Shown here: piece after piece, positions 14,944-64,000 of the stretch
Layout of the letters: every line of letters starts with the position of its first letter
How positions within the stretch are numbered: the first letter of the stretch is position 1
Source of the DNA: Candidatus Peribacteria bacterium
GTDB lineage: Bacteria; Patescibacteriota; Gracilibacteria; Peribacterales; Peribacteraceae
Length of the DNA: 64,000 bases
Assembly: GCA_023245865.1 (NCBI GenBank)
Contig: JAHFJN010000001.1
Location: forward strand, 398,587-462,586
Direction of reading: 5' to 3'
The notes under the pieces: generated by a model
Database searches by the model: none
The model's input: only the letters and a program-made list of their open reading frames with translations
What the model was told of the DNA's origin: nothing
Translations under genes and position numbers: made by a program

Positions 14944-16791
14944 TTATCTCTTGAGTACAGATAAAAAAGCCTCCTGCGTCAGGGTCACCCTCCCCATTTT
15001 CTTCATTCTCTTTTTCCCCTTCTTCTGCTTTTCGAGAAGCTTTTTCTTGCGCGATACGTCGCCGCCATACAAATACCCCGTCACATCTTTTCGCATCGCG
15101 CCGACGGTTTCGCGCGCGACGATTTTGCCGCCGATCGCCGCCTGGATCGGAATTTCAAATTGTGCCTTGGGCAAGACTTCCTTGAGGCGCTTGCAAATGA
15201 TCGCGCCGACCGCGTGCGCCTCGCTTTTATGCACGACCGTGCTGAGCGCATCCGCAGGTTCTCCAAGGAGCAAGATCGCAAGCTTCACCAAATCCCCTGT
15301 CCGGTAGCCGAGCGGCTCATAGCTCATAGAGCCGTAGCCTTCGGTGCCGGATTTTAATTTGTCGAAGAAATCGAGCACGATCGCCTGGAGCGGCACATCG
15401 AACCGCAGCAAACATCGCCCCGCATCAAGATACTCCAGTGTGTGATAGATACCACGGCGCTCCTGCACCAGATTCATGGCGGCTCCGATATCCTGCGCAC
15501 GGCACACGATTTCAAGGTGCACCCAGGGTTCCCGCACCTCTGCAATGTACGCGGCATCGGGAAAATCCGCGGGATTCGAAATCCGCGCGACATCCGGTTC
15601 ATCCGGTTTCAGAAGACTCGCACGCACGACGCTCGCCGGTTGCCGGACATTGAGTTTCACTTCATAGAGCACGCTCGGTGCGGTCACCACGAGATCACAA
15701 TCGTACTCGCGCTCGAGACGTTCCTGAATGATGTCGAGGTGCAGAAGCCCCAGGAATCCGCAGCGAAACCCGTTTCCGAGCGCAGCATTCTGCTCAGGCT
15801 CGCTCGAAAGAGCGGAGTCATTCAGTGAGAGTTTCTCTATGGCTTCACGCAAATCCGGGTAACTGTCCGCCTCGGTCGGATACAGCCCCGCAAAGACCAT
15901 CGGCTGCACGTGCGCATATCCGGGAAGCATCGCCGCATCTGCACGCGACGCAACCGTATCACCAACCCGCACCAGCTTTACGTCTTTGAGACCCGTCACG
16001 ATGTAACCGATCTGGCCTTCGGCTAGCTCTTCATCGGGAATGAATTTTGGAGAAAAGAATCCGACTTCCAATATTTCGAACGGCGTTTTGGTGCCCAGGA
16101 AATGCGCTTGCATTCCTGCCTTGAGAGTTCCCCCCATCACACGCACGTACGCCACGACCCCGCGGTAACTGTCGACAACGGCATCGAAAATTAATGCACG
16201 TGTACTTGAGTCTTGCGTCTTGAGTCTTGAGTCCCGTGCATGCGGAGGAGGAATCCTTTCAATCACCGCATCCAGAAGTTCCCCCACTCCCCTCCCATCC
16301 TTCGCGGAAATTTGGAGAATGTCTTCCTTCTTGCAACCGATCAACTTGATCACTTCCTCACAGACTCTCTCGGGATCCGCCGCAGGCAGGTCGATCTTAT
16401 TGAGAACGGGGATGATGGTGAGGCTATGTTCAAGCGCCATCATGAGCACCGCAATTGTCTGCGCTTGGACCCCTTGCGATGCATCCACAAGTAAAATCGC
16501 CCCCTCACATGCAGCCAAACTTCTGCTCACTTCGTAGCGAAAATCCGTATGACCGGGTGTGTCGATAAGGTTCAATTCAAAAGCAGTGTCATCCTGAGCC
16601 CGACGAAGGACCATGCGGACTGGCGTGAGTTTGATCGTAATCCCGCGCTCACGCTCGAGGTCCATCATGTCGAGCGTTTGTTCCCGCATCTGACGTTTTT
16701 GCAACGTTCCCGTCAGCTCGATCATCCGATCACTGAGCGTCGATTTGCCATGATCAATATGCGCGATGATACAAAAGTTACGGATGTTCAT
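14944..16791 (-). CDS. lepA: elongation factor 4 (LepA), ribosome back-translocase
   Basis: 615 residues from MNIRNFCIIAHIDHGKST. GTPase boxes G1 (AHIDHGKST), G3 (DTPGH) and G4 (NKID) are clear, and the LepA-specific C-terminal domain is present to the end. The chosen start overlaps the end of the pyruvyltransferase gene by 14 bases; longer in-frame starts exist but lack similarity. Two repeat-derived stretches lie inside: RRAQDD, from a 23-bp palindromic repeat, replaces the loop before the G3 motif, and DSRLKTQDSSTR, from a heptamer array, lies near residues 197-208. Both keep frame. Confidence 0.97.
   Translation of the reverse strand: MNIRNFCIIAHIDHGKSTLSDRMIELTGTLQKRQMREQTLDMMDLERERGITIKLTPVRMVLRRAQDDTAFELNLIDTPGHTDFRYEVSRSLAACEGAILLVDASQGVQAQTIAVLMMALEHSLTIIPVLNKIDLPAADPERVCEEVIKLIGCKKEDILQISAKDGRGVGELLDAVIERIPPPHARDSRLKTQDSSTRALIFDAVVDSYRGVVAYVRVMGGTLKAGMQAHFLGTKTPFEILEVGFFSPKFIPDEELAEGQIGYIVTGLKDVKLVRVGDTVASRADAAMLPGYAHVQPMVFAGLYPTEADSYPDLREAIEKLSLNDSALSSEPEQNAALGNGFRCGFLGLLHLDIIQERLEREYDCDLVVTAPSVLYEVKLNVRQPASVVRASLLKPDEPDVARISNPADFPDAAYIAEVREPWVHLEIVCRAQDIGAAMNLVQERRGIYHTLEYLDAGRCLLRFDVPLQAIVLDFFDKLKSGTEGYGSMSYEPLGYRTGDLVKLAILLLGEPADALSTVVHKSEAHAVGAIICKRLKEVLPKAQFEIPIQAAIGGKIVARETVGAMRKDVTGYLYGGDVSRKKKLLEKQKKGKKRMKKMGRVTLTQEAFLSVLKR
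16206..16233 (-). repeat. four-unit heptamer array inside lepA
   Basis: Plus-strand units TTGAGTC, TTGCGTC, TTGAGTC, TTGAGTC, translated in frame within LepA. Same class as the heptamer arrays in eno, murE and murD. Confidence 0.85.
16588..16610 (-). repeat. palindromic repeat (GTCATCCTGAGC family) inside lepA
   Basis: GTCATCCTGAGC followed by CGACGAAGGA on the plus strand. Encodes RRAQDD in LepA. Net length change in the protein is about one residue compared with the usual loop. Confidence 0.8.
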
Positions 16792-17791
16792 GAAGGCCTG
16801 CATGGTACGCGAAAGCATCCCGCAGCGCATCTTCCCCGACAACAACAAGCGCACAAAGCTCCGCAGGATCTTTTTTTACATAATCCTTCAAGGCGTCCAA
16901 TTTATCACGTTCTGCTTGTGTGATGATCTCGACGGGAATCCCGAGTGCCAAGGCGGCAAGGGCGCCATGGTAACGCTCCGCGAGAACGAATCGTGCGTCG
17001 GACAATGATTCAGCCATTGCATCAATGGATCGAATGGAAATGGTTGTGGTGGGGATGGACAACTCAGACTGCAACGTACGTGCGTAGGAAACCTCCGCTT
17101 CATTGTCGGGCTGAAGGAGGAGGATCCGAATGGAATCAAATCGCTCTCGAACGAGAGCATTTTTCACATGCTCTCGGAGAGTTGCACCAGAATTATTTCG
17201 GGGTATGACAATGAGTACATTTTGTGAACTTTGTTGTCTGTTCTCTTTACGGAGTAATAAAAAGACAGGATCGAATGTTTGAACAATTTTTGTACTCAAT
17301 GACCATCTATGCACTCGATCGTACGAGACATGGTCACGGACAGAAATGAATGCGGCCCTCCGACACACCCACCTCGTTATCCACTCCCCCCTCCTCGTCC
17401 TCAAAGGACCAATTCCTTGAAATGCCAGTAGAATTGGCTTACCCAGTGCCCACGCAAAAAACGCATGCCACCCCCACAGAAAGCATGCAAACAACGATTC
17501 GCTGTCGGTAAAGAGCGATCCCCCGCCAAACACAACCGCATCGGCTCTGTAAAACGCCTTTATTGTCTTCCACCAAGGAGTAAAGAGAGAGCAAAAGCCG
17601 AATGGAAGGCGGGGCACGAGTGTCATGCCAAGTGAAAAACGTGTCGACCCTTCGACGAGCTCAGGATGACACGTTTTTTGTACCGAGGTAACCGTCCACT
17701 CCACCTCCGGAAACGTACCCAAAAAGTACTCCTTCAGTGCTTCATCGCCGAAGTTCCCCACGCCAAAGTTCCCGATCAGCACACAGCGCAT
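16778..17791 (-). CDS. polysaccharide pyruvyl transferase (CsaB/WcaK-like)
   Basis: 337 residues. The start MRCVLIGNFGVGNFGDEALKE, the AVVFGGGSLFTD motif, IGPLRT and the late LAERYHGALAALALGIPV block are the family hallmarks. CsaB-type enzymes add pyruvate to wall polysaccharides, which SLH domains then bind; the SLH-like protein at 10.5 kb is a possible user. A palindromic repeat encodes CHPELVEGSTRFSLGM near residues 41-56, in the surface region after the first strands. Its 3' end overlaps lepA by 14 bases. A TATACT box sits six bases before the ATG, suggesting a leaderless mRNA. Confidence 0.88.
   Translation of the reverse strand: MRCVLIGNFGVGNFGDEALKEYFLGTFPEVEWTVTSVQKTCHPELVEGSTRFSLGMTLVPRLPFGFCSLFTPWWKTIKAFYRADAVVFGGGSLFTDSESLFACFLWGWHAFFAWALGKPILLAFQGIGPLRTRRGEWITRWVCRRAAFISVRDHVSYDRVHRWSLSTKIVQTFDPVFLLLRKENRQQSSQNVLIVIPRNNSGATLREHVKNALVRERFDSIRILLLQPDNEAEVSYARTLQSELSIPTTTISIRSIDAMAESLSDARFVLAERYHGALAALALGIPVEIITQAERDKLDALKDYVKKDPAELCALVVVGEDALRDAFAYHAGLHEHP
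17647..17672 (-). repeat. palindromic repeat inside the pyruvyltransferase gene
   Basis: Plus strand reads ACCCTTCGACGAGCTCAGGA then TGACAC; encodes CHPELVEGS in frame. Followed by a short TACCGAGG word that also occurs beside the repeat cluster at 9.05-9.19 kb. Confidence 0.9.
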
Positions 17792-33982: not shown

Positions 33983-34202
33983 CCCCCCTCTCCCCATGTG
34001 GAGAGGGGGGAAATAATGTGCCGACTGTTCTTGAACCAAGGAGGCATGTTCCATGCTTCAGCATGTCCTTCGACTACGCTCAGGATGACACGAGGAGTAG
34101 ACGGAGGGGAACCCGCCAGTGCCGCGGGGGTGTTGCGGCCGGCGGAGTGTGGCGCCACCTGGCGGAGCGCTTTTGGTTCTTTTCTGGCCCTGAGAAAAGA
34201 AC
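33983..34202 (+). repeat. dispersed ~185-bp intergenic repeat, copy B
   Basis: A CTCTCC/GGAGAG hairpin (about 33987-34012) precedes GTGCCGACTG at 34018. From there to 34202 the sequence matches copy C at 49336-49526 almost throughout. It includes TTCTTGAACCAAGGAGGCAT, a GTCATCC-type palindrome half (34066-34091), the GCGGGGGTGTTGCGGCCGG block and GGCGGAG. It ends in a 10-bp hairpin: GTTCTTTTCT (34176-34185) and AGAAAAGAAC (34193-34202). Lies between dnaA and thrS. Confidence 0.9.
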
Positions 34203-37579: not shown

Positions 37580-37951
37580 TTATACCTCCTCTCCCCGAGG
37601 GAGAGGATTGAGGTGAGGGGTCCTAAGATATTTCACAATCACTTCGATGACCACATGAATATCTTCCTTCAATTCATGATTTTCAAAATGCAGAATGCGA
37701 TGCCCGCATTTCTTCAAAAATTGTTCTCTTTTTTGATCATAAGCAACTTGCAATGCATGGATTCCGCCATCAAGCTCGATAATGAGGTTCGCTTCTCTAC
37801 AAAAGAAATCAACGATGTAGCAACCGATGGGAACTTGTCGGCGAAATTTGTAATCGCAGAGTTGCCTGTTCTTCAATTTTTTCCAGAGCAACTTCTCCAC
37901 AGGCGTTTGCTGTTTGCGAAGAGTCCGTGCGAATACAATGTTCTCTTTCAT
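37580..37951 (-). CDS. DUF559 (Vsr-like) endonuclease
   Basis: 123 residues. The fold signature is present: TPVEKLLWKKLKNR, then YKFRRQVPIGCYIVDFFC, then LIIELDGGIH, then a C-terminal RILHF strand. These contain the Asp, Glu and Gln/Asp residues of a PD-(D/E)XK-type nuclease related to very-short-patch repair enzymes. The last 15 or so residues are encoded by a palindromic repeat that also flanks the other side of the gene in inverted orientation. This suggests the gene travels with the repeats. Confidence 0.88.
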   Translation of the reverse strand: MKENIVFARTLRKQQTPVEKLLWKKLKNRQLCDYKFRRQVPIGCYIVDFFCREANLIIELDGGIHALQVAYDQKREQFLKKCGHRILHFENHELKEDIHVVIEVIVKYLRTPHLNPLPRGEEV

Positions 37952-38006
37952 GGAAGATTCATTCTACCCCTCACCCTAACCCTCTCCCTATAGGAGAGGG
38001 GTACCA
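37586..38006. mobile_element. DUF559 nuclease cassette framed by inverted palindromic repeats
   Basis: Left frame (37588-37623): a CCTCTCCCCGAGGGAGAGG hairpin, then GAGGTGAGGGGTCC. Right frame (37970-38000): ACCCCTCACCCTAACC-like start, then a CTCTCCCTATAGGAGAGG hairpin. The frames are inverted relative to each other with hairpins outermost, and the only content is a DUF559 gene whose C-terminal LRTPHLNPLPRGEE is encoded by the left frame. A gene-free version of the same frame lies at 45834-45936. Confidence 0.8.
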
Positions 38007-38054: not shown

Positions 38055-38130
38055 GGGCAATTAGCTCAGCTGGGTCGAGTCCACCTTGGCGGACGAGCAA
38101 TCAGAAAAGCGCCACTGGCGCTCTAGCCAG
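38055..38130 (+). repeat. fold-back tRNA-Val fragment with inserted core (upstream of tRNA-Val)
   Basis: 38055-38073 equals the first 19 bases of tRNA-Val. Next comes an insert forming a hairpin (GTCCACC/GGCGGAC, one mismatch) and the word ACGAGCAATCAGA. Then AAGCGCCAC resumes the tRNA around positions 24-31, and 38116-38130 (TGGCGCTCTAGCCAG) is the perfect reverse complement of tRNA-Val bases 38178-38192. The same design with the same core precedes tRNA-Ile. No anticodon or 3' half is present, so it is not a tRNA gene. Confidence 0.85.
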
Positions 38131-38162
38131 ACGGTTGAGAAGCTGTCATTATTTATACATTC

Positions 38163-38239
38163 GGGCAATTAGCTCAGCTGGCTAGAGCGCCACATTGACA
38201 TTGTGGAGGTCACTGGTTCAAGTCCAGTATTGCCCACCA
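38163..38239 (+). tRNA. tRNA-Val (GAC)
   Basis: 77 bases with CCA. Acceptor GGGCAAT pairs with ATTGCCC; anticodon stem CCACA/TGTGG encloses TTGACAT, giving GAC. Immediately preceded by a fold-back fragment of itself. Confidence 0.97.
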
Positions 38240-38332
38240 TTCGACCTTTCACATCCTCAGAAGCAGGTATGCATCTGGGCTCATGGCGAGCCTAGATTCC
38301 CTACCTGTTTTCTCACGAAAAGGAGACTGATT

Positions 38333-44355: not shown

Positions 44356-45588
44356 TTACGGAAGTAAACTCTTGAACCACGTGCCGACGCTGACCATCGC
44401 ACGCTTCATTTGGAAGTTGGCCATCCCCCCCGCTTGATCCCCTTCCCTCAGGCCCCAGATCAACGTCCCGAGTGCGGTTGCGTACGCGGGATCATCCACT
44501 TTTTCGATCACGCCTCCGATGTCGACGGGGAATCCCATCTGCACGGGGAGACCAAGGACATCGCGCGCGAGATCAAGGACACCGGGAGCTTTGACAGCGG
44601 CTCCCGTGAGTACCGCGCCGGCAGGGAGCATCCCGCTGCGAGCGATGCGCGTGAGCTCGGCCTTGACGAGCGAGAAGATCTCGAAGTAACGCGCCTGCAT
44701 GATCTCCGCCATGTAGCGCTTGCTGACGGTTTGGGTATCGACGCGACTGACCGACGACAGGTCGATCATCTCGCGTTCATTGATCTCCTGCGGGAGCACC
44801 GAACCAAATTCGATCTTGATCCGCTCCGCGGTGTCCACCGATGTGCGAAGGCCGATCGCAATGTCGTTCGTGACCATCTCGCCGGCAACAGGCAGCCCCA
44901 CCGAGTGCAGGATTGTCCCCTCTTCAAAGACCGACACGCTCGTGCAACCGGCTCCGATGTCGATCACCACCACTCCGAGTTCCTTCTGACGCTTGCTTAA
45001 GGTCGCCTCCGCCGCGGCGATTGTACTCGGCACGAGAGCGTCGATATCGACCCCCGCCTGCGAAATACACTTCTCGATATTCTTCACATGCTGAACGTGG
45101 CCCGTGATGATGTGCGCCTCGACCTCCAGGCGAATACCCGTCATGCCGATGGGATTTTTAATGCCGCGCTGCTCATCGACGCTATAGGCCTTGGGCTCGA
45201 TATGGAGAATTCTGCGGTTGGGAGGAATGCTGACGGCCTGCGCCGCCTCGAGCACACGCGCGACGTCGTCCATCGTGATTTCACTGCCGGAGATCGCGAT
45301 GACCCCGCGGCTGTCGAACGCCTCGATGTGTGACCCGCTCATCCCTACAAATACATGGTTCACCGGCACACCCGCCATGCGCTCCGCGTCTTCGAGCGAG
45401 GAAATGATGTTGTGAATCAGCTCCTCCACGTCGATCACCTGCCCCTTGCGAATACCGAGCGAAGGCGAAACGCCGACACCGATGATATTCGGAACACGCT
45501 GTTCCTGTCCTCCATCTGCTATGGCAACGACGGTCCGGATTTTACTACTTCCGATATCCAGACTAGCGAGCACTCGTTCCTTGGGCAT
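44356..45588 (-). CDS. ftsA: cell division protein FtsA
   Basis: 410 residues, actin-like. Begins ERVLASLDIGSSKIRTVVA (phosphate 1 motif), has VVIDIGAGCTS (phosphate 2), an adenosine motif near VLTGAAVKAPG and a C-terminal amphipathic membrane anchor (MVSVGTWFKSLLP). FtsA tethers FtsZ filaments to the membrane. No ftsQ or mur genes precede it; the upstream 350 bases hold repeats and no convincing gene. Confidence 0.96.
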   Translation of the reverse strand: MPKERVLASLDIGSSKIRTVVAIADGGQEQRVPNIIGVGVSPSLGIRKGQVIDVEELIHNIISSLEDAERMAGVPVNHVFVGMSGSHIEAFDSRGVIAISGSEITMDDVARVLEAAQAVSIPPNRRILHIEPKAYSVDEQRGIKNPIGMTGIRLEVEAHIITGHVQHVKNIEKCISQAGVDIDALVPSTIAAAEATLSKRQKELGVVVIDIGAGCTSVSVFEEGTILHSVGLPVAGEMVTNDIAIGLRTSVDTAERIKIEFGSVLPQEINEREMIDLSSVSRVDTQTVSKRYMAEIMQARYFEIFSLVKAELTRIARSGMLPAGAVLTGAAVKAPGVLDLARDVLGLPVQMGFPVDIGGVIEKVDDPAYATALGTLIWGLREGDQAGGMANFQMKRAMVSVGTWFKSLLP

Positions 45589-45939
45589 AAAACTGAAGGG
45601 TAATAGGGAAGCAAAACATACTCCGACCGCTGCATTCGTTGATGGAAATCAGTCTACGGATGATGCATACGCCATTGCAAGGGCACTACGACTACCTTTC
45701 GTGTACAGAATTGCGAAACGAGTGCACAAAATATGTTCAGAACTTTTGGCTCACCTTCAAGGGAAAGACAAAAATGTATTCAGGAGAAAACGGGGCGAAT
45801 TATTAGTGTATACGGATTGTATACAGAAATTTCCTCTCCTTGAGGGAGAGGACTGAGGTGAGGGGTCCACAAAAATTTCCACAAATTGAATTTGCTCCAA
45901 CCCCTCACCCTAACCCTCTCCCGCGGGGAGAGGGAAGAA
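45589..45939. other. 351-bp gap upstream of ftsA: weak ORF and empty DUF559-type repeat frame
   Basis: 45589-45830 presumably contains the ftsA promoter. A plus-strand frame runs through it to 45856 but has no start codon clear of ftsA and no recognisable family. GTATAC words form an imperfect palindrome near 45809-45825. 45834-45936 is a palindromic repeat pair, described separately. Confidence 0.5.
45834..45936. repeat. empty version of the DUF559 cassette frame (inverted palindrome pair)
   Basis: CCTCTCCTTGAGGGAGAGG hairpin plus GAGGTGAGGGGTCC (45834-45870), then about 30 AT-rich bases, then ACCCCTCACCCTAACC and a CTCTCCCGCGGGGAGAGG hairpin (45900-45933). Same order and orientation as the frame around the DUF559 gene at 37.6-38.0 kb. 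Confidence 0.85.
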
Positions 45940-46893
45940 CTAGAACAACGCCATCTGCTTCTGCTCAACCGCACCCACGAAGAGGTGCTGCTGCGACACA
46001 TCCATTGCAGCAAAAATCTTCTTCCCGTAGTCCGTGCTACAAAATTCCCGCAATCTCCTTGTCAGCAGCGTGAACTCCGTCTGCGCAAAAAAATCGATGA
46101 TGTTCTGTGCCGGCAAATCGTGAAGCGTAATTTCCTCAAGCGTTGGGTGGAGCGGAATATCGCAAATGAGCACCGCCATGCGCTGACAAAAGAAGGCCTG
46201 CTCGCGATCACGCTCGAGCTTCGCTCGCACTGCAGGACGAATATCGGCGAGGTTCTCGTACACACCTTCGAGTGTCTGGTAACGCTGTAAAAGATCTGCC
46301 GCGGTAACAGGGCCGATGCCAATCACTCCCGGCAAGTTATCGGAACTGTCACCGACGAGCCCCTTGTAGGCGGCAACCTGATCGGGGCGGATGCCATACT
46401 TCGCCTCGATTTCGGCCGGTCCCAAATACTCCGCCTGCAGGTAGCCCTTATGGGGAATAGCAATACGCGTACGATCCGTCGCAAGTTGGAATGCATCACG
46501 ATCGCCCGTCACGATCGTCACCTTCATGTCATTCGCCTCACCGGCTCGTGCATATGCGCAAAGGAAATCATCCGCCTCGTATTGCTTGTCACTCACATGT
46601 GAGAGTCCCATTGCCGTCACCAATTGCATGACCCGCGGAATCTGCACGTAAAAATCATCCGGTGTTTCCGCACGTCCTTCCTTATACGTGGCATTCTCCT
46701 GGTGGCGAAATGTCTCGTCACCGGCATCGAAACAGAGAATCATATGGGTCGGCTCCTCCGTACGCAAAATATGCAGGAGCATCGAAGCCATGCCAAAGAC
46801 GGTATTCACCTGCTCCCCCGCCTTCGTTTTGAGGGTCCGGGGAATGGCCCAGTACGCCCGGTACATGAGGTGGTGGCCATCGATTAAGACCAA
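45940..46893 (-). CDS. stand-alone 5'-3' exonuclease (PolI N-domain / flap endonuclease)
   Basis: 317 residues. Matches the N-terminal nuclease of DNA polymerase I: LIDGHHLMYRAYWA, CFDAGDETFRHQ, YEADDFLCAYA, VTGDRDAFQLA, KGLVGDSSDNLPGV and the helix-hairpin-helix GIGPVTAADLL. The acidic metal ligands are in place. It stops after the nuclease domain, so there is no polymerase fusion. It removes RNA primers and flaps. Upstream of it lie inverted hexamer arrays. Confidence 0.93.
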   Translation of the reverse strand: MVLIDGHHLMYRAYWAIPRTLKTKAGEQVNTVFGMASMLLHILRTEEPTHMILCFDAGDETFRHQENATYKEGRAETPDDFYVQIPRVMQLVTAMGLSHVSDKQYEADDFLCAYARAGEANDMKVTIVTGDRDAFQLATDRTRIAIPHKGYLQAEYLGPAEIEAKYGIRPDQVAAYKGLVGDSSDNLPGVIGIGPVTAADLLQRYQTLEGVYENLADIRPAVRAKLERDREQAFFCQRMAVLICDIPLHPTLEEITLHDLPAQNIIDFFAQTEFTLLTRRLREFCSTDYGKKIFAAMDVSQQHLFVGAVEQKQMALF

Positions 46894-46931: not shown

Positions 46932-47010
46932 CGGGTTCGGGTTCGGGTTCGGACTTTACTTGTAATTAAATAGTTTCCTAATCCTAACCCAAACCCTAGC
47001 CCGAACCCTC
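46932..47010. repeat. inverted hexamer arrays
   Basis: Left arm repeats GGGTTC three times (46933-46950). The right arm, read on the minus strand, gives GGGTTC, GGGCTA, GGGTTT, GGGTTA, GGATTA (to about 46978). About 25 AT-rich bases separate them. Period 6 in both arms. Confidence 0.85.
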
Positions 47011-47035
47011 AATTTCCGCTATACTGAGGGGAAAT

Positions 47036-49323: not shown

Positions 49324-49335
49324 TAATACAACAAA

Positions 49336-49526
49336 GTGCCGACTGTTCTTGAACCAAGGAGGCATGTTCCTTTTTAATGGAATATCCTTCGACTACGCTC
49401 AGGATGACACAAGAAATTGATGGAGGGGTACCGCTAGTGCCGCGGGGGTGTTGCGGCCGGTGGAGTGGGGCGCCACCTGGCGGAGAATTTCTTTGGTCCT
49501 TTCTTGTTGCCCTGACAAGAAAGGAC
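49336..49526 (+). repeat. dispersed ~185-bp intergenic repeat, copy C
   Basis: Closely matches copy B (34018-34202) throughout, including GTGCCGACTGTTCTTGAACC, a palindrome half at 49386-49410 and the GCGGGGGTGTTGCGGCCGG block. Ends in a 12-bp perfect hairpin: GTCCTTTCTTGT (49496-49507), loop TGCCCTG, ACAAGAAAGGAC (49515-49526). Arms differ from copies A and B but remain fully paired. Located 3' of murE. Confidence 0.92.
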
Positions 49527-50037: not shown

Positions 50038-50808
50038 TCATTTTCTCCTCCATAACCACACCCCTGCCACTACGATCGGTATCGTCAACCACTGCCCCTC
50101 GGAGAGTCCCCACCAAAAAACCCCATGCTGCTCGCGAATGAACTCGAGGAGAAATCTCACGATGCCATAGAGGAGAAGGAAGAGGGCACAATTTTTTCCG
50201 TCCTTCGACGAGCTCAGGATGACACGTGATGAATATTTCAGATTCCAAAAGAGAATCGCTGCAATGATCATCATCAAGCCAAAATCATAGAGTTGAATCG
50301 GGTGCCGCAGCCCCTCTGCGCCGGGAAATTGCATCCCCCACGAAAGCCGCGTTACGGTTCCGTAGAGTTCTTGATTGATGAAGTTGCCGATGCGCCCGAG
50401 GCCAAGACCAATGGTGATCGGAATGACAACGACATCCGCAATGCGCAGGGTTACGTCGTTGGTTTTGCCACGCAAACTCCAGAGGAGTGCGACCGTGACC
50501 CCAATGAACCCTCCATGTGAGGCCATCCCTCCTTTCCAAACTTGCAAGATCTCGATCAGGTGAGTGGCATAGTACCGCGGATCATAGAAGAAGACGTACC
50601 CGAGCCGCCCGCCGACGACGACGCCGATAATGGCAGCGGCGATGAGATCGGACCATTCATCACGCGTGAGGTTGAGATCGCGGTAGCGCTGGAGCCTCGG
50701 TAACATCCAAAATGCGAGGAGAAAGGAAGCGAGGTACAGGAGTCCGTACCAATGCACTCCGAAGCCAAAAAGCTCGAAAGCGACGGCGCGGGAGGGAAAG
50801 AGAGACAT
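50038..50808 (-). CDS. lgt: prolipoprotein diacylglyceryl transferase
   Basis: 256 residues from MSLFPSRAVAFELFG, polytopic. Canonical Lgt segments: GGRLGYVFFYDP, GGMASHGGFIGV (with the catalytic-region His) and GLGRIGNFINQELYG, followed by RHPIQLYDF. It transfers diacylglycerol to the lipobox Cys of prolipoproteins. A palindromic repeat at 50201-50225 encodes RVILSSSKDG in a loop between the last two membrane helices. Its start codon shares a 20-bp palindrome with the divergent tsaD start. Confidence 0.95.
   Translation of the reverse strand: MSLFPSRAVAFELFGFGVHWYGLLYLASFLLAFWMLPRLQRYRDLNLTRDEWSDLIAAAIIGVVVGGRLGYVFFYDPRYYATHLIEILQVWKGGMASHGGFIGVTVALLWSLRGKTNDVTLRIADVVVIPITIGLGLGRIGNFINQELYGTVTRLSWGMQFPGAEGLRHPIQLYDFGLMMIIAAILFWNLKYSSRVILSSSKDGKNCALFLLLYGIVRFLLEFIREQHGVFWWGLSEGQWLTIPIVVAGVWLWRRK
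50201..50225 (-). repeat. palindromic repeat inside lgt
   Basis: TCCTTCGACGAGCTCAGGA followed by TGACAC on the plus strand; in frame within a cytoplasmic or periplasmic loop of Lgt. Confidence 0.9.
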
Positions 50809-50825: not shown

Positions 50826-51932
50826 CATATTCTCGCACTCGAAACCTCCTGTGATGAAACCGCGGTGGCGATTGTCGAAGATGGCACCAAGGTCCTCAGC
50901 AATGTGATCGCAAGCTCAAGCGACGCATTCAATGCCGCGGGCGGCGTGATCCCCGAGGAGGCAGCCCGCAAACAAGTGCAGTGCATTCTGCCGGTCATCC
51001 ATCAAGCCCTGAAAAAAGCAGACTGCACCTGGAAGCAGATCGATGCCCTCGCCGTCACGCGCGGACCGGGGTTACTTGGCTCGCTCCTCGTCGGCACGAC
51101 CGCCGCCCGCGCGCTCGCCTCGCTTCATCAACTCCCTCTTATAGGAGTTCACCACACGCTCGGCCACTTAAGTTCCACATGTCTTGATAGTGATCCATGC
51201 GATGGTGTCATGGTGAGCGTAGTCGAACCACAATTCCCTGTCCTGTCCCTCTCCGCCTCCGGCGGCCACACGGAACTGTGGCTGCGCACTGCGCACACCA
51301 AAGGAACGCTCCTCGGTCGCACGCGCGATGACGCAGCCGGCGAGGCGTTTGATAAAGGCGCGAGCCTGCTTGGGCTCCCCTACCCCGGCGGCCCCGCCAT
51401 CAGCAAAGCTGCAGAGAGCGGTGACCCCGACGCATTCCCCTTTCCTCTTCCTCTCAAAAACGAAGACACGCTTGATTTCAGTTTTTCGGGACTCAAGACA
51501 GCCTTGCGCTATACGATTCGGGATGCAATGCAGTGTCATCCTGAGCACAGTCGAAGGACGACACACGGTGTCCATGGTTCGACCGTGCTCACCATGACAC
51601 CGTTACCTATTGCCGACCTCGCCGCCTCCTACCAAGCCGCCCTCTGTCTGCATCTTTGTGATCGCATCAAACGAGCACTCGAGGCTCACTCGGAGATCCG
51701 TGAAATCCACATTGTCGGCGGCGTCTCAGCCAATACGTTCCTCCGTTCGCTCGTGCAGTCGATCGTGCCGGCACACATCATCCTACGTTTCCCGAAAAAA
51801 ATCTCGTACTGCACCGACAACGCCGCGATGATCGGCAGTGCCGCATATTGGATGGCGCAAGAACTCCGCGAGGAAGCGTATGCATCGTTTGAGACAATGG
51901 CATCACTACCCTTGGCAGCCGCATTGTCATAG
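50823..51932 (+). CDS. tsaD: tRNA N6-adenosine threonylcarbamoyltransferase
   Basis: 369 residues, about 30 longer than usual. Makes the t6A37 modification of tRNAs reading ANN codons. MHILALETSCDETAVA, the metal motif HHTLGH, SASGGHTEL, DDAAGEAFDKGA and GGVSANTFLR are in place. Extra residues come from palindromic repeats: VSVVEPQF after the metal motif and a 22-residue piece (CHPEHSRR ... STVLTM) encoded by an inverted repeat pair. Both keep frame and lie outside the active-site motifs. Confidence 0.95.
   Translation: MHILALETSCDETAVAIVEDGTKVLSNVIASSSDAFNAAGGVIPEEAARKQVQCILPVIHQALKKADCTWKQIDALAVTRGPGLLGSLLVGTTAARALASLHQLPLIGVHHTLGHLSSTCLDSDPCDGVMVSVVEPQFPVLSLSASGGHTELWLRTAHTKGTLLGRTRDDAAGEAFDKGASLLGLPYPGGPAISKAAESGDPDAFPFPLPLKNEDTLDFSFSGLKTALRYTIRDAMQCHPEHSRRTTHGVHGSTVLTMTPLPIADLAASYQAALCLHLCDRIKRALEAHSEIREIHIVGGVSANTFLRSLVQSIVPAHIILRFPKKISYCTDNAAMIGSAAYWMAQELREEAYASFETMASLPLAAALS
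51207..51598 (+). repeat. one single and one paired palindromic repeat inside tsaD
   Basis: Single copy at 51207-51230 (GTCATGGTGAGCGTAGTCGA plus ACCA). Inverted pair at 51535-51558 (GTCATCCTGAGCACAGTCGA plus AGGA) and 51576-51598 (its near complement), separated by 17 bases, able to form a long hairpin. Confidence 0.92.
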
Positions 51933-55066: not shown

Positions 55067-55142
55067 TGGTGGGCGATGATGGATTTGAACCATCGACCTC
55101 GACATTATCAGTGTCGCGCTCTAACCCCTGAGCTAATCGCCC
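55067..55142 (-). tRNA. tRNA-Ile (GAU)
   Basis: 76 bases with CCA. Acceptor GGGCGAT pairs with ATCGCCC; anticodon stem CGACA/TGTCG encloses CTGATAA, giving GAU. Preceded, in its direction of transcription, by a fold-back fragment of itself. Confidence 0.97.
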
Positions 55143-55164
55143 GTTTAATGATGGAAAGATTCTA

Positions 55165-55243
55165 TCAGGGGTTAGAGCGCAAGTCGCGCTCATCTGATTG
55201 CTCGTACGCCTCAGGCGTACTCAACCCCCTGAGCTAATCGCCC
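55165..55243 (-). repeat. fold-back tRNA-Ile fragment with inserted core (upstream of tRNA-Ile)
   Basis: On the minus strand, 55243-55225 equals the first 18-19 bases of tRNA-Ile (GGGCGATTAGCTCAGGGGG). Then a hairpin GTACGCC-TGA-GGCGTAC and ACGAGCAATCAGA, then GAGCGCGAC resuming the tRNA. It ends with a 16-base perfect antisense of the tRNA D-arm (55180-55165 against 55131-55116). Core, order and insertion point match the tRNA-Val element at 38055-38130. Confidence 0.87.
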
Positions 55244-55283
55244 ATAAAATACCTCGCAAGGGTACGGAAATTGATGTCCGTGG

Positions 55284-58976: not shown

Positions 58977-59948
58977 TTAGCTCGATGCAAGTGTCTGCAC
59001 GTACTGAAACACACTATTCGCCGCGACCGTGGCCTCCCCTGCCGCGGTTGTAAATTGGGCAAAGTGATTGCTCGCACTCGTGACATCTCCGGCGCCGTAC
59101 ACTCCCGGAACGCTCGTTTGCATCGTATTGTCGACCTTGAGGAAGCCACGATCATCGAGCGCACAACCAAGTTGCAGAGGAAGACGTACCTCTGGATCGG
59201 ACCCTATTTCGATGAAGACGCCATCGACCGTGAGGGTATCGCTCCCCTGAAACGGAGTATCGAGCTTGATGCCTGTTACCTTGCTTGTTCCAAGAACCTC
59301 CACCGTTTGATGTCCGAGTACGAAGGTCACATTTTCCTTCGCTTTCACGCGGTCGACCCAGTAGGGCTCCGCCCGAAACTGATCGCGCCGATGGACAAGG
59401 TACACCTTCCGCGCGACCTGCGCCGCGATCGCGGCGCCCTCGACCGCACTGTCCCCTCCACCGATCACCGCGACATCTTTGCCGCGGTAGAAAAACGCAT
59501 CGCATGTCGCGCAGTACGTCACCCCTTTACCCGAAAATTCCTCCTCTCCCGGGATCCCGAGATGTCGCTTGCTACTGCCCGTCGCGATGATGATTGTCTT
59601 TGCTTCGTACGTTTCCCCGCCCTCGAGCGTGAGTTGAAAACCCCTTGCTTCCCCCGTGTCATTCCGAGCATTCATTTGTGTGTCATTCCGAGCGTAGTCG
59701 AGGAACGACACCCGATCAATCTTGTACGTCACCGTATCACCAAAGCTGAGTGCATGCTTCTTGAACTTCTCCATCAAATCAGGGCCTTTGATTTCGATCT
59801 CTCCCGGCCAATTACCCACCTCCGCCGCGGTGTTGCCCATCCCCCCCTCCTCGAGTCCAACGAGCAGCGTGCTCAATTTATACCGCGCCGTATACACAGC
59901 AGCGGTGTACCCCGCACATCCAAGCCCAATAATTGCAACATCGAACAT
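58977..59948 (-). CDS. trxB: thioredoxin reductase
   Basis: 323 residues. FAD motif GLGCAGYTAA (with Cys where Pro is usual in GxGPAG), redox pair C146-A-T-C149 in YCATCDAFF, NADPH motif IGGGDSAVEGA and the late GAGDV. It passes electrons from NADPH to thioredoxin. About ten residues extra relative to E. coli TrxB before the redox pair are encoded by palindromic repeat DNA (DYARNDTQMNARNDTGEA), which contains a tandem ARNDT. The start follows GGAGGC. Confidence 0.95.
   Translation of the reverse strand: MFDVAIIGLGCAGYTAAVYTARYKLSTLLVGLEEGGMGNTAAEVGNWPGEIEIKGPDLMEKFKKHALSFGDTVTYKIDRVSFLDYARNDTQMNARNDTGEARGFQLTLEGGETYEAKTIIIATGSSKRHLGIPGEEEFSGKGVTYCATCDAFFYRGKDVAVIGGGDSAVEGAAIAAQVARKVYLVHRRDQFRAEPYWVDRVKAKENVTFVLGHQTVEVLGTSKVTGIKLDTPFQGSDTLTVDGVFIEIGSDPEVRLPLQLGCALDDRGFLKVDNTMQTSVPGVYGAGDVTSASNHFAQFTTAAGEATVAANSVFQYVQTLASS
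59656..59712 (-). repeat. palindromic repeat with partial tandem duplication inside trxB
   Basis: GTGTCATTCCGAGCATTC, then GTGTGTCATTCCGAGCGTAG, then TCGAGGAACGACAC. The GTCATTCCGAGC half occurs twice 29 bases apart, translated as ARNDT twice. Confidence 0.9.
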
Positions 59949-61556: not shown

Positions 61557-62858
61557 ATGAAAGAGTTCCAATCCTTCATCTTCGACTCTTATTCCTTCGA
61601 TGCTTCGACGGGAAAGATTACGCTGAACTACAGCCTGGATGATGAGGTGAAGTTTACAGAAACTCTCGAGGTGCCTGTGTCTAGTCTTCGACAGGCTCAG
61701 ACTGACACACTCGAAGCTCTGCTTTTCGCACTCCACCTCATCGGCGGCATCAGCTACTACAAAACCTGTCTGCCCAAAAACATTGTCATTCGCTCGGGAA
61801 CACTCACAAAAGAGCAGGCAACATTTTGGAATACCGTGTACGAGGAGGGGCTCGGGGAATTTTTCTTTAAGAACAAGATTGATTTTCGGGGTCGTATCGA
61901 CTTTCCAAACAATCCGATTGCGTGTCACATTGAGCCTGTCGAAATGTCGACACGCAAGTCTATGCTTCGACAGGCTCAGCATGACAAAAAAATCCTCGTC
62001 CCCCTCGGTGGCGGCAAGGACTCCCTTGTGACCGTGGAACTGCTCAAAGCACAGGGCCACCCGATCACACTGCTACGCCTCGGTGCACATCCTCTCATTG
62101 ACGAACTTGCCAAGATCGCAGGGCTCCCACTCCTGAACGTGAAACGCTGCCTCTCTCCCGAACTCTTCCGCTTGAATGAAGAGGGCGCACTGAACGGACA
62201 CGTTCCGATCACCGCTTACCTCAGCATTCTCTCGATTGTGATCGCAGAACTCACGGGACACACCGACGTCGTCATGAGCAATGAAGTGAGCGCCAACGAA
62301 GGCAACGTGATTTTCCACGATAAAGAGATCAATCACCAGTGGAGCAAGAGCGCGGAATTTGAAACAATGCTGCAGGAATACATCGGCGGGATCGGAAGCG
62401 ACGTTCGGTATTCCAGTTTGCTTCGGCCTTACACGGAGCTGCAGATCGTGGAAATGTTTTGCCACTACCCGCAGTACTTCGAGCATTTCACGAGTTGTAA
62501 CAAAAACTGGAAAATTCGCTCATCTCCAAAGAGTAGTGGCTTGCCACGCGAAGCTCTGAGCACAGCGAAGAGCGAAGTGTGGTGCGGCTCCTGCCCCAAA
62601 TGTGCATTCGCCTTCTGCTTGTTCGCCGCCTATCTTCCGCTCTCGACACTACTGAAAATCTTTCGCAAGAATCTCTTCGAAGATGTCTCGCTCCTCCCCC
62701 TGTATCGAGAGTTGCTTGGCCTCGAAGGCTTCAAGCCGTTTGAATGCGTAGGCACCAAAGAAGAAACCCGCGAAGCCTTTCGCCTCGCCCACGTGCGTGG
62801 GGAATTGGAAGGAACGCCTGTCATGGACATGTTTCTCAATGCATATGCACATTCGTGA
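61557..62858 (+). CDS. murL: UDP-N-acetylmuramoyl-L-alanyl-L-glutamate epimerase
   Basis: 433 residues. Resembles MurL in order: LHLIGGISYYKTCLP, LVPLGGGKDSLVTVELLK (ATP-binding PP-loop-like), ALNGHVPITAYLS, NEVSANEGN, INHQWSKSAEFE, YSSLLRPYTEL, HFTSCNKNWKI and WCGSCPKCAF. MurL inverts the terminal L-Glu of UDP-MurNAc-L-Ala-L-Glu to D-Glu, replacing glutamate racemase. Three stretches are repeat-encoded: SSLRQAQTDT, a 22-residue piece with HIEPVEMS and MLRQAQHD, and GLPREALSTAKSEV. Overlaps murD by 14 bases. Confidence 0.85.
   Translation: MKEFQSFIFDSYSFDASTGKITLNYSLDDEVKFTETLEVPVSSLRQAQTDTLEALLFALHLIGGISYYKTCLPKNIVIRSGTLTKEQATFWNTVYEEGLGEFFFKNKIDFRGRIDFPNNPIACHIEPVEMSTRKSMLRQAQHDKKILVPLGGGKDSLVTVELLKAQGHPITLLRLGAHPLIDELAKIAGLPLLNVKRCLSPELFRLNEEGALNGHVPITAYLSILSIVIAELTGHTDVVMSNEVSANEGNVIFHDKEINHQWSKSAEFETMLQEYIGGIGSDVRYSSLLRPYTELQIVEMFCHYPQYFEHFTSCNKNWKIRSSPKSSGLPREALSTAKSEVWCGSCPKCAFAFCLFAAYLPLSTLLKIFRKNLFEDVSLLPLYRELLGLEGFKPFECVGTKEETREAFRLAHVRGELEGTPVMDMFLNAYAHS
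61684..62582 (+). repeat. three palindromic repeat insertions inside murL
   Basis: 61684-61709 is a single half (TCTTCGACAGGCTCAG plus ACTGACAC). 61922-61988 is an inverted pair: GTGTCACATTGAGCCTGTCG ... CTTCGACAGGCTCAGCATGA. 62544-62582 is a different nested palindrome (CCACGC..GCTCT..AGAGC..GTGTGG). All keep frame. Confidence 0.9.
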
Positions 62859-64000
62859 ATTAAGCGGCAAACGCATCTGCATCCTCGGCTACGGCAAGGA
62901 GGGACAGGCGATGGTCAGAGCACTAGAAAAGTACGCACCGGGGTGTGAGATCACGATTGCGGATCGAGAGACGAAGATCCAAGAAACAAGATACAAGATG
63001 CAAACAGGGGAAAAATATCTCGAAAATCTCGATCGTTTCGACGTGATCATCAAATCCCCGGGGGTACCCCCAACGAAGATGCAAGATGCAAGATGCAAGA
63101 TGCAAACAACACCGACGCAAATATTTTTCGACTCCATCGCCAACTCCGGCGTCATTGTCATCGGTGTGACCGGAAGCAAAGGCAAAAGCACCACGGCAAG
63201 TTTGATTCATCACATTTTATCAGCTCGAAGCTTTCTCGTAGGAAATATTGGGGAGCCAGCTATCGCACATCTAGAAGACGCAAAGAAGGGAACCATCTTT
63301 GTGATGGAGCTCAGCAGCTATCAACTTCTGGGTCTGAAGATCTCCCCACACATCGCTGTCATCACAAGCTTCTTTCCGGAGCACCTCGATTACCATGCCT
63401 CGACTCCGCTCGGCACAGGTTCAACTCCTTTGGAAAATTATATGGATGCGAAGAAAAATATCACCCGATTCCAAGGGGAAGATGACATTGTCTTCTTCTG
63501 TGCAGATTCGCACGGTGCCGCCGAGATCGCAAAGGAAGGACTCGGCCGCAAAATACCCTTCTCGGCATCCGATGCCCCCGTACACATCGAAGAGACGCAC
63601 TTGCTCGGCACTCATAACTTGAGCAATATCGCAGCGGCCTTCGCAGTTGCGCGTGAACTTGGGGTAGATGACAATGCTGCGATCGCAGCGATCAAAACCT
63701 TCCACGGACTCCCCCACCGCCTCCAATCGCTTGGGGTCCATCACGGCTGCGAATGGATCGACGATGCAATCTCGACGACCCCCGAGTCCACGATCGCGGC
63801 CCTTGATGCTCTGGGTGATCGCGTCCACACCATCATCCTCGGGGGGCAGGATCGCGGGAATGACTTCACTGAGCTCGGCAAACGGATCGCCGAGTCCTCC
63901 ATCAAACAGGTCATTCTCTTCCCTGGCAGCGGCCCGCGGATCCGCAAAGCGATTGAAGACGCGGGAGCAGATGTTACGTTCTTCGAGGCAAATTCGATGG
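62845..64000 (+). CDS. murD: Mur ligase of the MurD type (3' end outside window)
   Basis: 385 residues visible. The ATG at 62845 overlaps the murL stop region by 14 bases. Begins GKRICILGYGKEGQAMV, has GVTGSKGKST (ATP loop), MELSSYQL, SFFPEHLDYH and, late, IILGGQDRG, all typical of MurD. It adds glutamate to UDP-MurNAc-L-Ala. Next to murL it may be the L-Glu-specific MurD2 form. Repeat-derived stretches: two heptamer arrays (IQETRYKMQ and KMQDARCKMQ) and STPLGTGSTP in the HLDYH loop. Frame intact to the window edge. Confidence 0.9.
   Translation, partial: MHIRELSGKRICILGYGKEGQAMVRALEKYAPGCEITIADRETKIQETRYKMQTGEKYLENLDRFDVIIKSPGVPPTKMQDARCKMQTTPTQIFFDSIANSGVIVIGVTGSKGKSTTASLIHHILSARSFLVGNIGEPAIAHLEDAKKGTIFVMELSSYQLLGLKISPHIAVITSFFPEHLDYHASTPLGTGSTPLENYMDAKKNITRFQGEDDIVFFCADSHGAAEIAKEGLGRKIPFSASDAPVHIEETHLLGTHNLSNIAAAFAVARELGVDDNAAIAAIKTFHGLPHRLQSLGVHHGCEWIDDAISTTPESTIAALDALGDRVHTIILGGQDRGNDFTELGKRIAESSIKQVILFPGSGPRIRKAIEDAGADVTFFEANSM
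62974..63103 (+). repeat. two direct heptamer arrays inside murD
   Basis: 62974-63001: AAGATCC, AAGAAAC, AAGATAC, AAGATGC. 63076-63103: AAGATGC four times. Both are followed by AAAC and both are translated in frame. Confidence 0.92.

What the first reader, a model, noticed from the sequence alone, without database searches (positions are those of the whole stretch)
45834..45936. Empty copy of the DUF559 cassette frame
Both frames occur in the same order and orientation as around the DUF559 gene, but with only about 30 AT-rich bases between them. This looks like a non-autonomous (MITE-like) derivative, or the ancestral pair before gene capture. It sits between convergent-looking ends upstream of ftsA.
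Basis: seen in the sequence. Interest (0 to 1): 0.7.

Follow-up and report, generated by a model that had tools for sequence, protein, structure and literature searches.

The report
Gene-less twin of a DUF559 cassette
A 104-base pair of mirror-folding DNA repeats beside a cell-division gene looks like a gene-less member of a widespread repeat family whose ends also bracket a small nuclease gene (DUF559), which makes that nuclease the first candidate driver for repeats that until now had none.

Summary
At 45832-45935 two hairpin-plus-tail units face each other across a 35-nt AT-rich spacer, in the same order and orientation as the two units around the only DUF559 gene of this 1.1-Mb genome (37587-38000). 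The left ends share a variant that only one solo copy has. The units match a published repeat, the class II intrastrand-triplex motif (TM/PIT; 23 copies in E. coli, five inverted pairs), for which that study found no link to mobile elements. New here: DUF559 genes across the phylum, and in Deinococcus, cyanobacteria and alphaproteobacteria, sit inside inverted pairs of such units (66% of 89 loci versus about 2% of controls; 27 of 27 classifiable pairs inverted). TM copy number tracks DUF559 presence (5 or more copies: 27/73 versus 3/307 genomes). The tail mirrors the hairpin arm across 73 arm sequences. Relatives carry multi-copy empty pairs with homologous spacers, and 29 relatives lack this element at the conserved exonuclease-ftsA site. 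Best reading: a non-autonomous, REPIN/MITE-like member of a DUF559-linked mobile repeat family. Derivation from this particular cassette is weakly supported, no target-site duplication was found, and DUF559 activity on these ends is inferred.

The parts
45832..45865 (+). Left TM unit of the empty pair: hairpin, 3-nt linker, inward purine tail AGGTGAGGGG (variant with the outermost C-G-G triad replaced by T-A-A, as in the cassette's left end)
45866..45900 (.). AT-rich spacer (35 nt); left part weakly similar to the 3' end of the DUF559 gene (p = 0.017)
45901..45935 (-). Right TM unit, inverted; fits the TM_ECO consensus 24/24 (type A, TTA linker)
45832..45935 (.). Whole empty inverted pair; predicted to fold end to end (-58.3 kcal/mol with RNA parameters)
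37587..37620 (+). Left TM unit of the DUF559 cassette (3' side of the gene; the ORF reads through it to its stop at 37580)
37580..37951 (-). DUF559 gene, 123 aa, Vsr-like/EDxHD nuclease fold, the only DUF559 of the genome
37967..38000 (-). Right TM unit of the DUF559 cassette (5' side of the gene)
45940..46893 (-). 5'-3' exonuclease gene; its stop codon abuts the empty pair (context)
44356..45588 (-). ftsA, downstream neighbour on the same strand (context)

Best explanation
The feature is a non-autonomous mobile repeat: two intrastrand-triplex-motif (TM) units facing each other, the same kind of ends that bound the one-gene DUF559 cassette 8 kb away. SHOWN: the TM identity, the strictly inverted arrangement around DUF559 genes, co-occurrence of TM copies with DUF559, covariation of hairpin arm and tail, presence or absence at orthologous sites, and multi-copy empty pairs in relatives. 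INFERRED: the DUF559 protein (Vsr/EDxHD-type nuclease) recognises the folded end, probably on single-stranded DNA at the replication fork, and cuts there, so that cassettes move themselves and empty pairs and single units are moved or copied in trans into intergenic sites. This would work like REPIN/RAYT with an unrelated nuclease. The copy after the exonuclease stop codon would be one such insertion, probably with no function for the cell.
For: Same order, orientation and left-end variant as the cassette. 89 DUF559 loci: locus-matched inverted hairpins in 66%, versus 14% for mismatched flanks, 1.7% for shuffles and 1.6-1.7% for two control sets of intervals. 27 of 27 classified flanking pairs are inverted. 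TM >= 5 copies in 27/73 genomes with DUF559 versus 3/307 without, p = 1.3e-18; 16/60 versus 3/304 outside the own family. The tail mirrors the purine arm at 95% versus 76% when tails are permuted, 0 of 1000 permutations, 73 distinct arms. Same architecture on Deinococcus, cyanobacterial, Azospirillum and Sphingomonas plasmids. Sites without the cassette in D. radiodurans, D. ficus, D. deserti and Deinococcus sp. QL22. 29 relatives lack the element at the exonuclease-ftsA site. Empty pairs with homologous spacers in G135 and G389. No Y1 (RAYT-type) transposase in this genome. DUF559 catalytic-type residues invariant, and fold like 3hrl and the homing endonuclease I-Bth0305I.
Against: No target-site duplication or precise junction was found; the same-genus site in G377 is too diverged to resolve. 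The empty pair is single-copy here and its right end is closer to solo copies than to the cassette. Some genomes rich in TM lack a detected DUF559: G389 (84% complete), G143, G145, and G068 with only a weak hit. E. coli ycjD and the Neisseria, Sinorhizobium and Photobacterium DUF559 loci tested lack paired TM flanks. The co-occurrence test does not correct for phylogeny or G+C, and flanking units themselves add to low counts. Nothing here shows that DUF559 binds or cuts TM DNA.
Confidence: 0.55

Rival explanations
1. TM units are the landing or boundary sites and DUF559 is a free-standing homing-type endonuclease: it cuts sites that lack the cassette and is copied in by recombination. The empty pair is a vacant site (pair before gene capture) rather than a derivative.
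For: The closest solved folds include the homing endonuclease I-Bth0305I. Empty pairs and cassettes share end types.
Against: The Deinococcus sites without DUF559 have no TM pair at all, so the cassette arrived there as a unit with its ends. Empty pairs in G135 and G389 are themselves multi-copy with homologous spacers.
Confidence: 0.17
2. TM repeats spread by another route (for example replication slippage, host recombination, or a transposase not in this genome), and DUF559 is only a passenger that was once bracketed by them.
For: TM-rich genomes without a detected DUF559 exist. Holder et al. 2015 attribute the variability of TM sites to replication trouble (PMC4666352). The E. coli fepB-entC pair is polymorphic with ycjD unflanked.
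Against: Locus-matched, strictly inverted flanking of many diverged DUF559 genes and co-occurrence in 380 genomes are hard to get from a passenger. No RAYT-type Y1 gene in this genome.
Confidence: 0.2
3. The hairpins serve the host as transcription terminators or mRNA 3'-end protectors after the exonuclease gene.
For: The element lies immediately after a stop codon and folds strongly.
Against: Twenty-nine relatives do without it at the same site. The tail covaries with the arm, which a terminator does not need. Holder et al. report an earlier test that found no promoter or terminator activity for the E. coli motif, and state that purine-type triplexes do not form in RNA (PMC4666352).
Confidence: 0.06

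Closest known systems
TM/PIT intrastrand-triplex repeats (Hoyne et al. as cited in Holder et al. 2015, PMC4666352), including E. coli type A + type B inverted pairs
   Same: Same class II motif (pyrimidine arm, purine arm, 3-nt linker, mirror tail GGGTGAGGG); the same inverted pairs, 98-100 nt for three E. coli pairs against 104 nt here, with two different end types; intergenic.
   Different: The paper reports no association with mobile elements and no partner gene; here the motif brackets DUF559 genes across phyla.
REPIN / BIME with RAYT (Bertels and Rainey 2011, PMC3116915; GTAG/CGTC repeats 2013, PMC3733652)
   Same: Two inverted hairpin repeats with a short spacer, solo copies, and a single-gene version in which the same repeats bracket a nuclease gene.
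   Different: No GTAG or CGTC tag; the nuclease is DUF559 (Vsr/EDxHD fold) and not a Y1 HUH transposase, which this genome lacks; the unit is a triplex motif and not a plain palindrome.
EDxHD/Vsr-like homing endonucleases (I-Bth0305I, 3r3p) and Vsr (1cw0)
   Same: Predicted fold of the DUF559 protein.
   Different: Not inside an intron; flanked by inverted TM units; no target site known.
MITEs
   Same: Short, non-coding, inverted ends shared with a coding element.
   Different: No target-site duplication shown; ends are structured hairpins with tails; the spacer is mostly unrelated to the coding cassette.

Membership tests
TM/PIT class II intrastrand-triplex repeat | Consensus CCCTCNCCC-N3-6-GGGNGAGGG-N3-GGGNGAGGG | tested here: met
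   Right unit 24/24 fixed positions, left unit 20/24; random windows mean about 13 mismatches
TM/PIT class II intrastrand-triplex repeat | Third strand mirrors the purine arm (triplex-compatible) | tested here: met
   95.5% mirror match versus 76.4% with permuted tails, 0/1000, 73 distinct arms in related loci
TM/PIT class II intrastrand-triplex repeat | Folds as a triplex physically | not testable with these tools
   Shown in vitro for the E. coli sequence in PMC4666352, which found no stable triplex in duplex DNA or by in vivo footprinting; not shown for this element
REPIN mobilised by RAYT | Two inverted hairpin repeats with short spacer | tested here: met
REPIN mobilised by RAYT | Cognate Y1 HUH transposase (RAYT) in the genome | tested here: not met
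   No PF01797 match in G000, 99.7% complete
REPIN mobilised by RAYT | GTAG (or CGTC) tag next to the stem | tested here: not met
   Absent by inspection of the unit sequences
MITE of a DUF559 element | Ends shared with a coding element | tested here: met
   Left ends 41/50 identical, the closest match; right ends 36/50, with solo copies up to 39/50
MITE of a DUF559 element | Multiple dispersed copies with related spacer | tested here: inconclusive
   One pair only in this genome; met in relatives G135 and G389
MITE of a DUF559 element | Target-site duplication | tested here: inconclusive
   None evident by eye in the window; no sufficiently close empty site
DUF559 (PF04480) | Pfam gathering score and conserved E-x-D-G...H residues | tested here: met
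   127.8 bits versus cut-off 20.6; D43, E54, D56, H60 of the aligned domain invariant

The most novel reading that the evidence does not exclude
Probability: 0.4. Interest if true: 0.85.

Novelty: new variant of a known kind. Interest (0 to 1): 0.66.

Why it matters
TM/PIT repeats have been known as abundant, unstable, orphan sequences in bacteria including E. coli, with no partner gene in the study read here, and DUF559 is a very widespread family of unknown function. Linking the two would give both a function and a testable mechanism, and would be a case of a Vsr-type nuclease doing the job that HUH transposases do for REP sequences. It also offers a natural DNA triplex whose three strands covary.

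Tried and rejected
(2) The first phylum pattern for empty pairs was mis-specified and missed the known site; it was corrected after a check in the window. (3) The built-in reversed-pattern control is useless for this motif because it is nearly mirror-symmetric; the comparison with DUF559-negative genomes was used instead. (4) A direct deletion derivative of the neighbouring cassette: only the left inner edge gave p = 0.017 and the right end did not fit, so it is not claimed. (5) A RAYT (Y1) driver in this genome: none found. (6) DUF559 remnants near solo or empty copies: none in the fetched loci apart from the cassette itself. (7) Target-site duplication by same-genus comparison, G135 versus G377: alignment too diverged. 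(8) The E. coli fepB-entC TM pair as a clean insertion: the indel is 186 bp and larger than the pair, so it does not show a TM-pair-only event. (9) No paper found linking DUF559 with inverted repeats or REP, within an open-access library only. (10) The genome-contig scan with one protein gave only 7 loci.

Full report
WHAT IS THERE. The window is G000:C3:398587-462586 of a 1.1-Mb genome with one DUF559 gene. At 45832-45935 two units face each other: hairpin TCCTCTCC..GGAGAGGA with tail AGGTGAGGGG on the left, and its inverted counterpart CCCCTCACCC-TAA-CCCTCTCCC..GGGGAGAGGG on the right, with 35 nt of AT-rich spacer. The same two frames in the same order bracket the DUF559 ORF at 37587-38000. 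The pair is 104 nt long and is predicted to fold end to end. It starts 4 nt after the stop of a 5'-3' exonuclease gene and lies upstream of ftsA, both genes on the minus strand, so the neighbours are co-directional and not convergent.

CENSUS IN THE GENOME. About 15 copies of the unit are found. Only two form close inverted pairs, the cassette and this one; the others are solo, on both strands. The left end of the empty pair is most similar to the left end of the cassette (41 of 50 positions; the next best are 34), and both carry the variant in which the outer C-G-G triad is T-A-A; one solo (L025) has it too. The right end is closest to solo copies (39 of 50) and less so to the cassette's right end (36 of 50). 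All four paired ends continue with T after the tail, while most solo copies continue with C. So the pair is the same kind of object as the cassette frame, but not provably a deletion copy of this cassette. The spacer resembles the DUF559 3' end only weakly (p = 0.017; the other comparisons are not significant).

WHAT THE UNIT IS. It matches the class II intrastrand-triplex motif, called TM or PIT (Holder et al. 2015, PMC4666352): pyrimidine arm, purine arm, 3-nt linker, and a tail that mirrors the purine arm. The right unit fits the E. coli consensus at 24 of 24 fixed positions and the left at 20 of 24. In units from related loci with 73 distinct arms, the tail mirrors its own arm at 95% of positions and permuted tails at 76% (0 of 1000 permutations reach the observed value). 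This is what a three-strand constraint predicts. According to that paper, purine-type triplexes form in DNA and not in RNA, it found no stable triplex in duplex DNA or by in vivo footprinting, and an earlier test found no promoter or terminator activity for the E. coli motif. The paper lists five inverted pairs in MG1655, always type A with type B; three of them are 98-100 nt long by its coordinates, the same build as the element here. It reports no association with mobile elements.

LINK TO DUF559. DUF559 occurs in 101 of 380 genomes drawn from the phylum, with up to 8 copies. In 89 loci, the upstream and downstream flanks share a locus-matched inverted hairpin in 66%, against 14% for flanks of different loci, 1.7% for shuffled flanks, and 1.6-1.7% for control intervals. 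Where both flanking units could be typed, all 27 pairs are inverted, 21 with tails inward and 6 with tails outward, none direct. Genomes with a good DUF559 match carry 5 or more TM copies in 27 of 73 cases, against 3 of 307 without; this holds outside the window's own family (16/60 versus 3/304), but it is not corrected for phylogeny or G+C, and flanking units add to low counts. The same build is seen on plasmids of Deinococcus, cyanobacteria, Azospirillum and Sphingomonas, while the E. coli, Neisseria, Sinorhizobium and Photobacterium DUF559 loci tested lack paired flanks. DUF559 is predicted to have a Vsr-like nuclease fold: nearest solved structures 3hrl, the homing endonuclease I-Bth0305I (3r3p) and, weaker, Vsr (1cw0); the E-x-D-G...H residues are invariant.

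SIGNS OF MOBILITY. The exonuclease-ftsA neighbourhood is kept in 29 related genomes, none of which has the element there; several carry other repeat families right after the exonuclease stop. In Deinococcus, hpaB and an NAD(P)-dependent oxidoreductase gene are adjacent in D. radiodurans, D. ficus and D. deserti but separated by a TM-bounded DUF559 cassette in D. proteolyticus and by a degraded one in D. wulumuqiensis; paaD and paaZ are adjacent in strain QL22 but separated by a cassette in D. psychrotolerans. Empty pairs exist in relatives: G135 (two, with spacers homologous over their length), G389 (four, with visibly related spacers), G260, and Sphingomonas parapaucimobilis, where two empty pairs share both ends with the cassette of the same strain. 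By exact pattern, however, the empty pair is unique to this genome among 380 phylum genomes. No target-site duplication could be read.

MECHANISM. Most likely the DUF559 nuclease recognises the folded end and cuts it, moving its own cassette and, in trans, empty pairs and single units, in the way RAYT is thought to serve REPINs. Only the arrangement, the association and the presence/absence patterns are shown; binding, cutting and movement are inferred. This genome has no Y1 transposase. The main rivals are homing into pre-existing pairs, and DUF559 as a passenger of repeats spread by other means; genomes rich in TM but without detected DUF559 (G389, G143, G145; G068 has only a weak hit) keep the second alive.

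VERDICT. A real feature: a new member of the known TM-pair kind, and evidence for a new variant of the REPIN/RAYT kind of system in which a DUF559 nuclease takes the place of the HUH transposase. The literature search covers open-access papers only, so novelty of the DUF559-TM link is provisional.

Noticed in passing
window 16578-16611, 17641-17680, 34063-34091, 49382-49411, 50200-50227, 51204-51232, 51533-51601, 59679-59706, 61677-61710, 61922-61989: A second dispersed inverted repeat family, GTGTCATCCTGAGC..TCGAAGGAC, with many copies in the window; related copies lie directly after the exonuclease stop codon in relatives L058 and L062, the same site as the finding.
   Followed up: partly
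window 34012-34167 and 49330-49485: Two copies of a block of about 155 nt, roughly 86-95% identical, that contains the GTCATCCTGAGC-type repeat.
   Followed up: no
window 38056-38240 and 55116-55250: Partial tRNA-like segments (GGGCAATTAGCTCAGCTGG repeated at short distance) next to the DUF559 cassette, with inverted copies near 55.2 kb; possibly tRNA duplication remnants.
   Followed up: no
window 46938-47012: Inverted, telomere-like repeats (GGGTTCGGGTTCGGG ... CCCAAACCCTAGCCCGAACCC) at the other side of the exonuclease gene.
   Followed up: no
window 62971-63108; L065, L069: AAGATACAAGATGCAAG-type repeats in the window; similar runs sit after the exonuclease stop codon in relatives L065 and L069, suggesting that this spot tolerates many repeat insertions.
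   Followed up: no
L351 (E. coli MG1655 fepB-entC), L353, L354: The TM pair between fepB and entC is polymorphic: at least 80% of the query is covered in 2752 of 5375 matching E. coli genomes; two of the others aligned here lack 186 bp, more than the pair itself.
   Followed up: partly
L145 (G252:C13:33253-34138): Two DUF559 genes in direct tandem 565 nt apart with identical scores, as if the cassette had duplicated recently.
   Followed up: no
G068 (whole genome handle; no locus fetched): A phylum member with 101 matches to the TM pattern but only a weak DUF559 hit (E = 1.6e-5); either a diverged driver or a counter-example.
   Followed up: no
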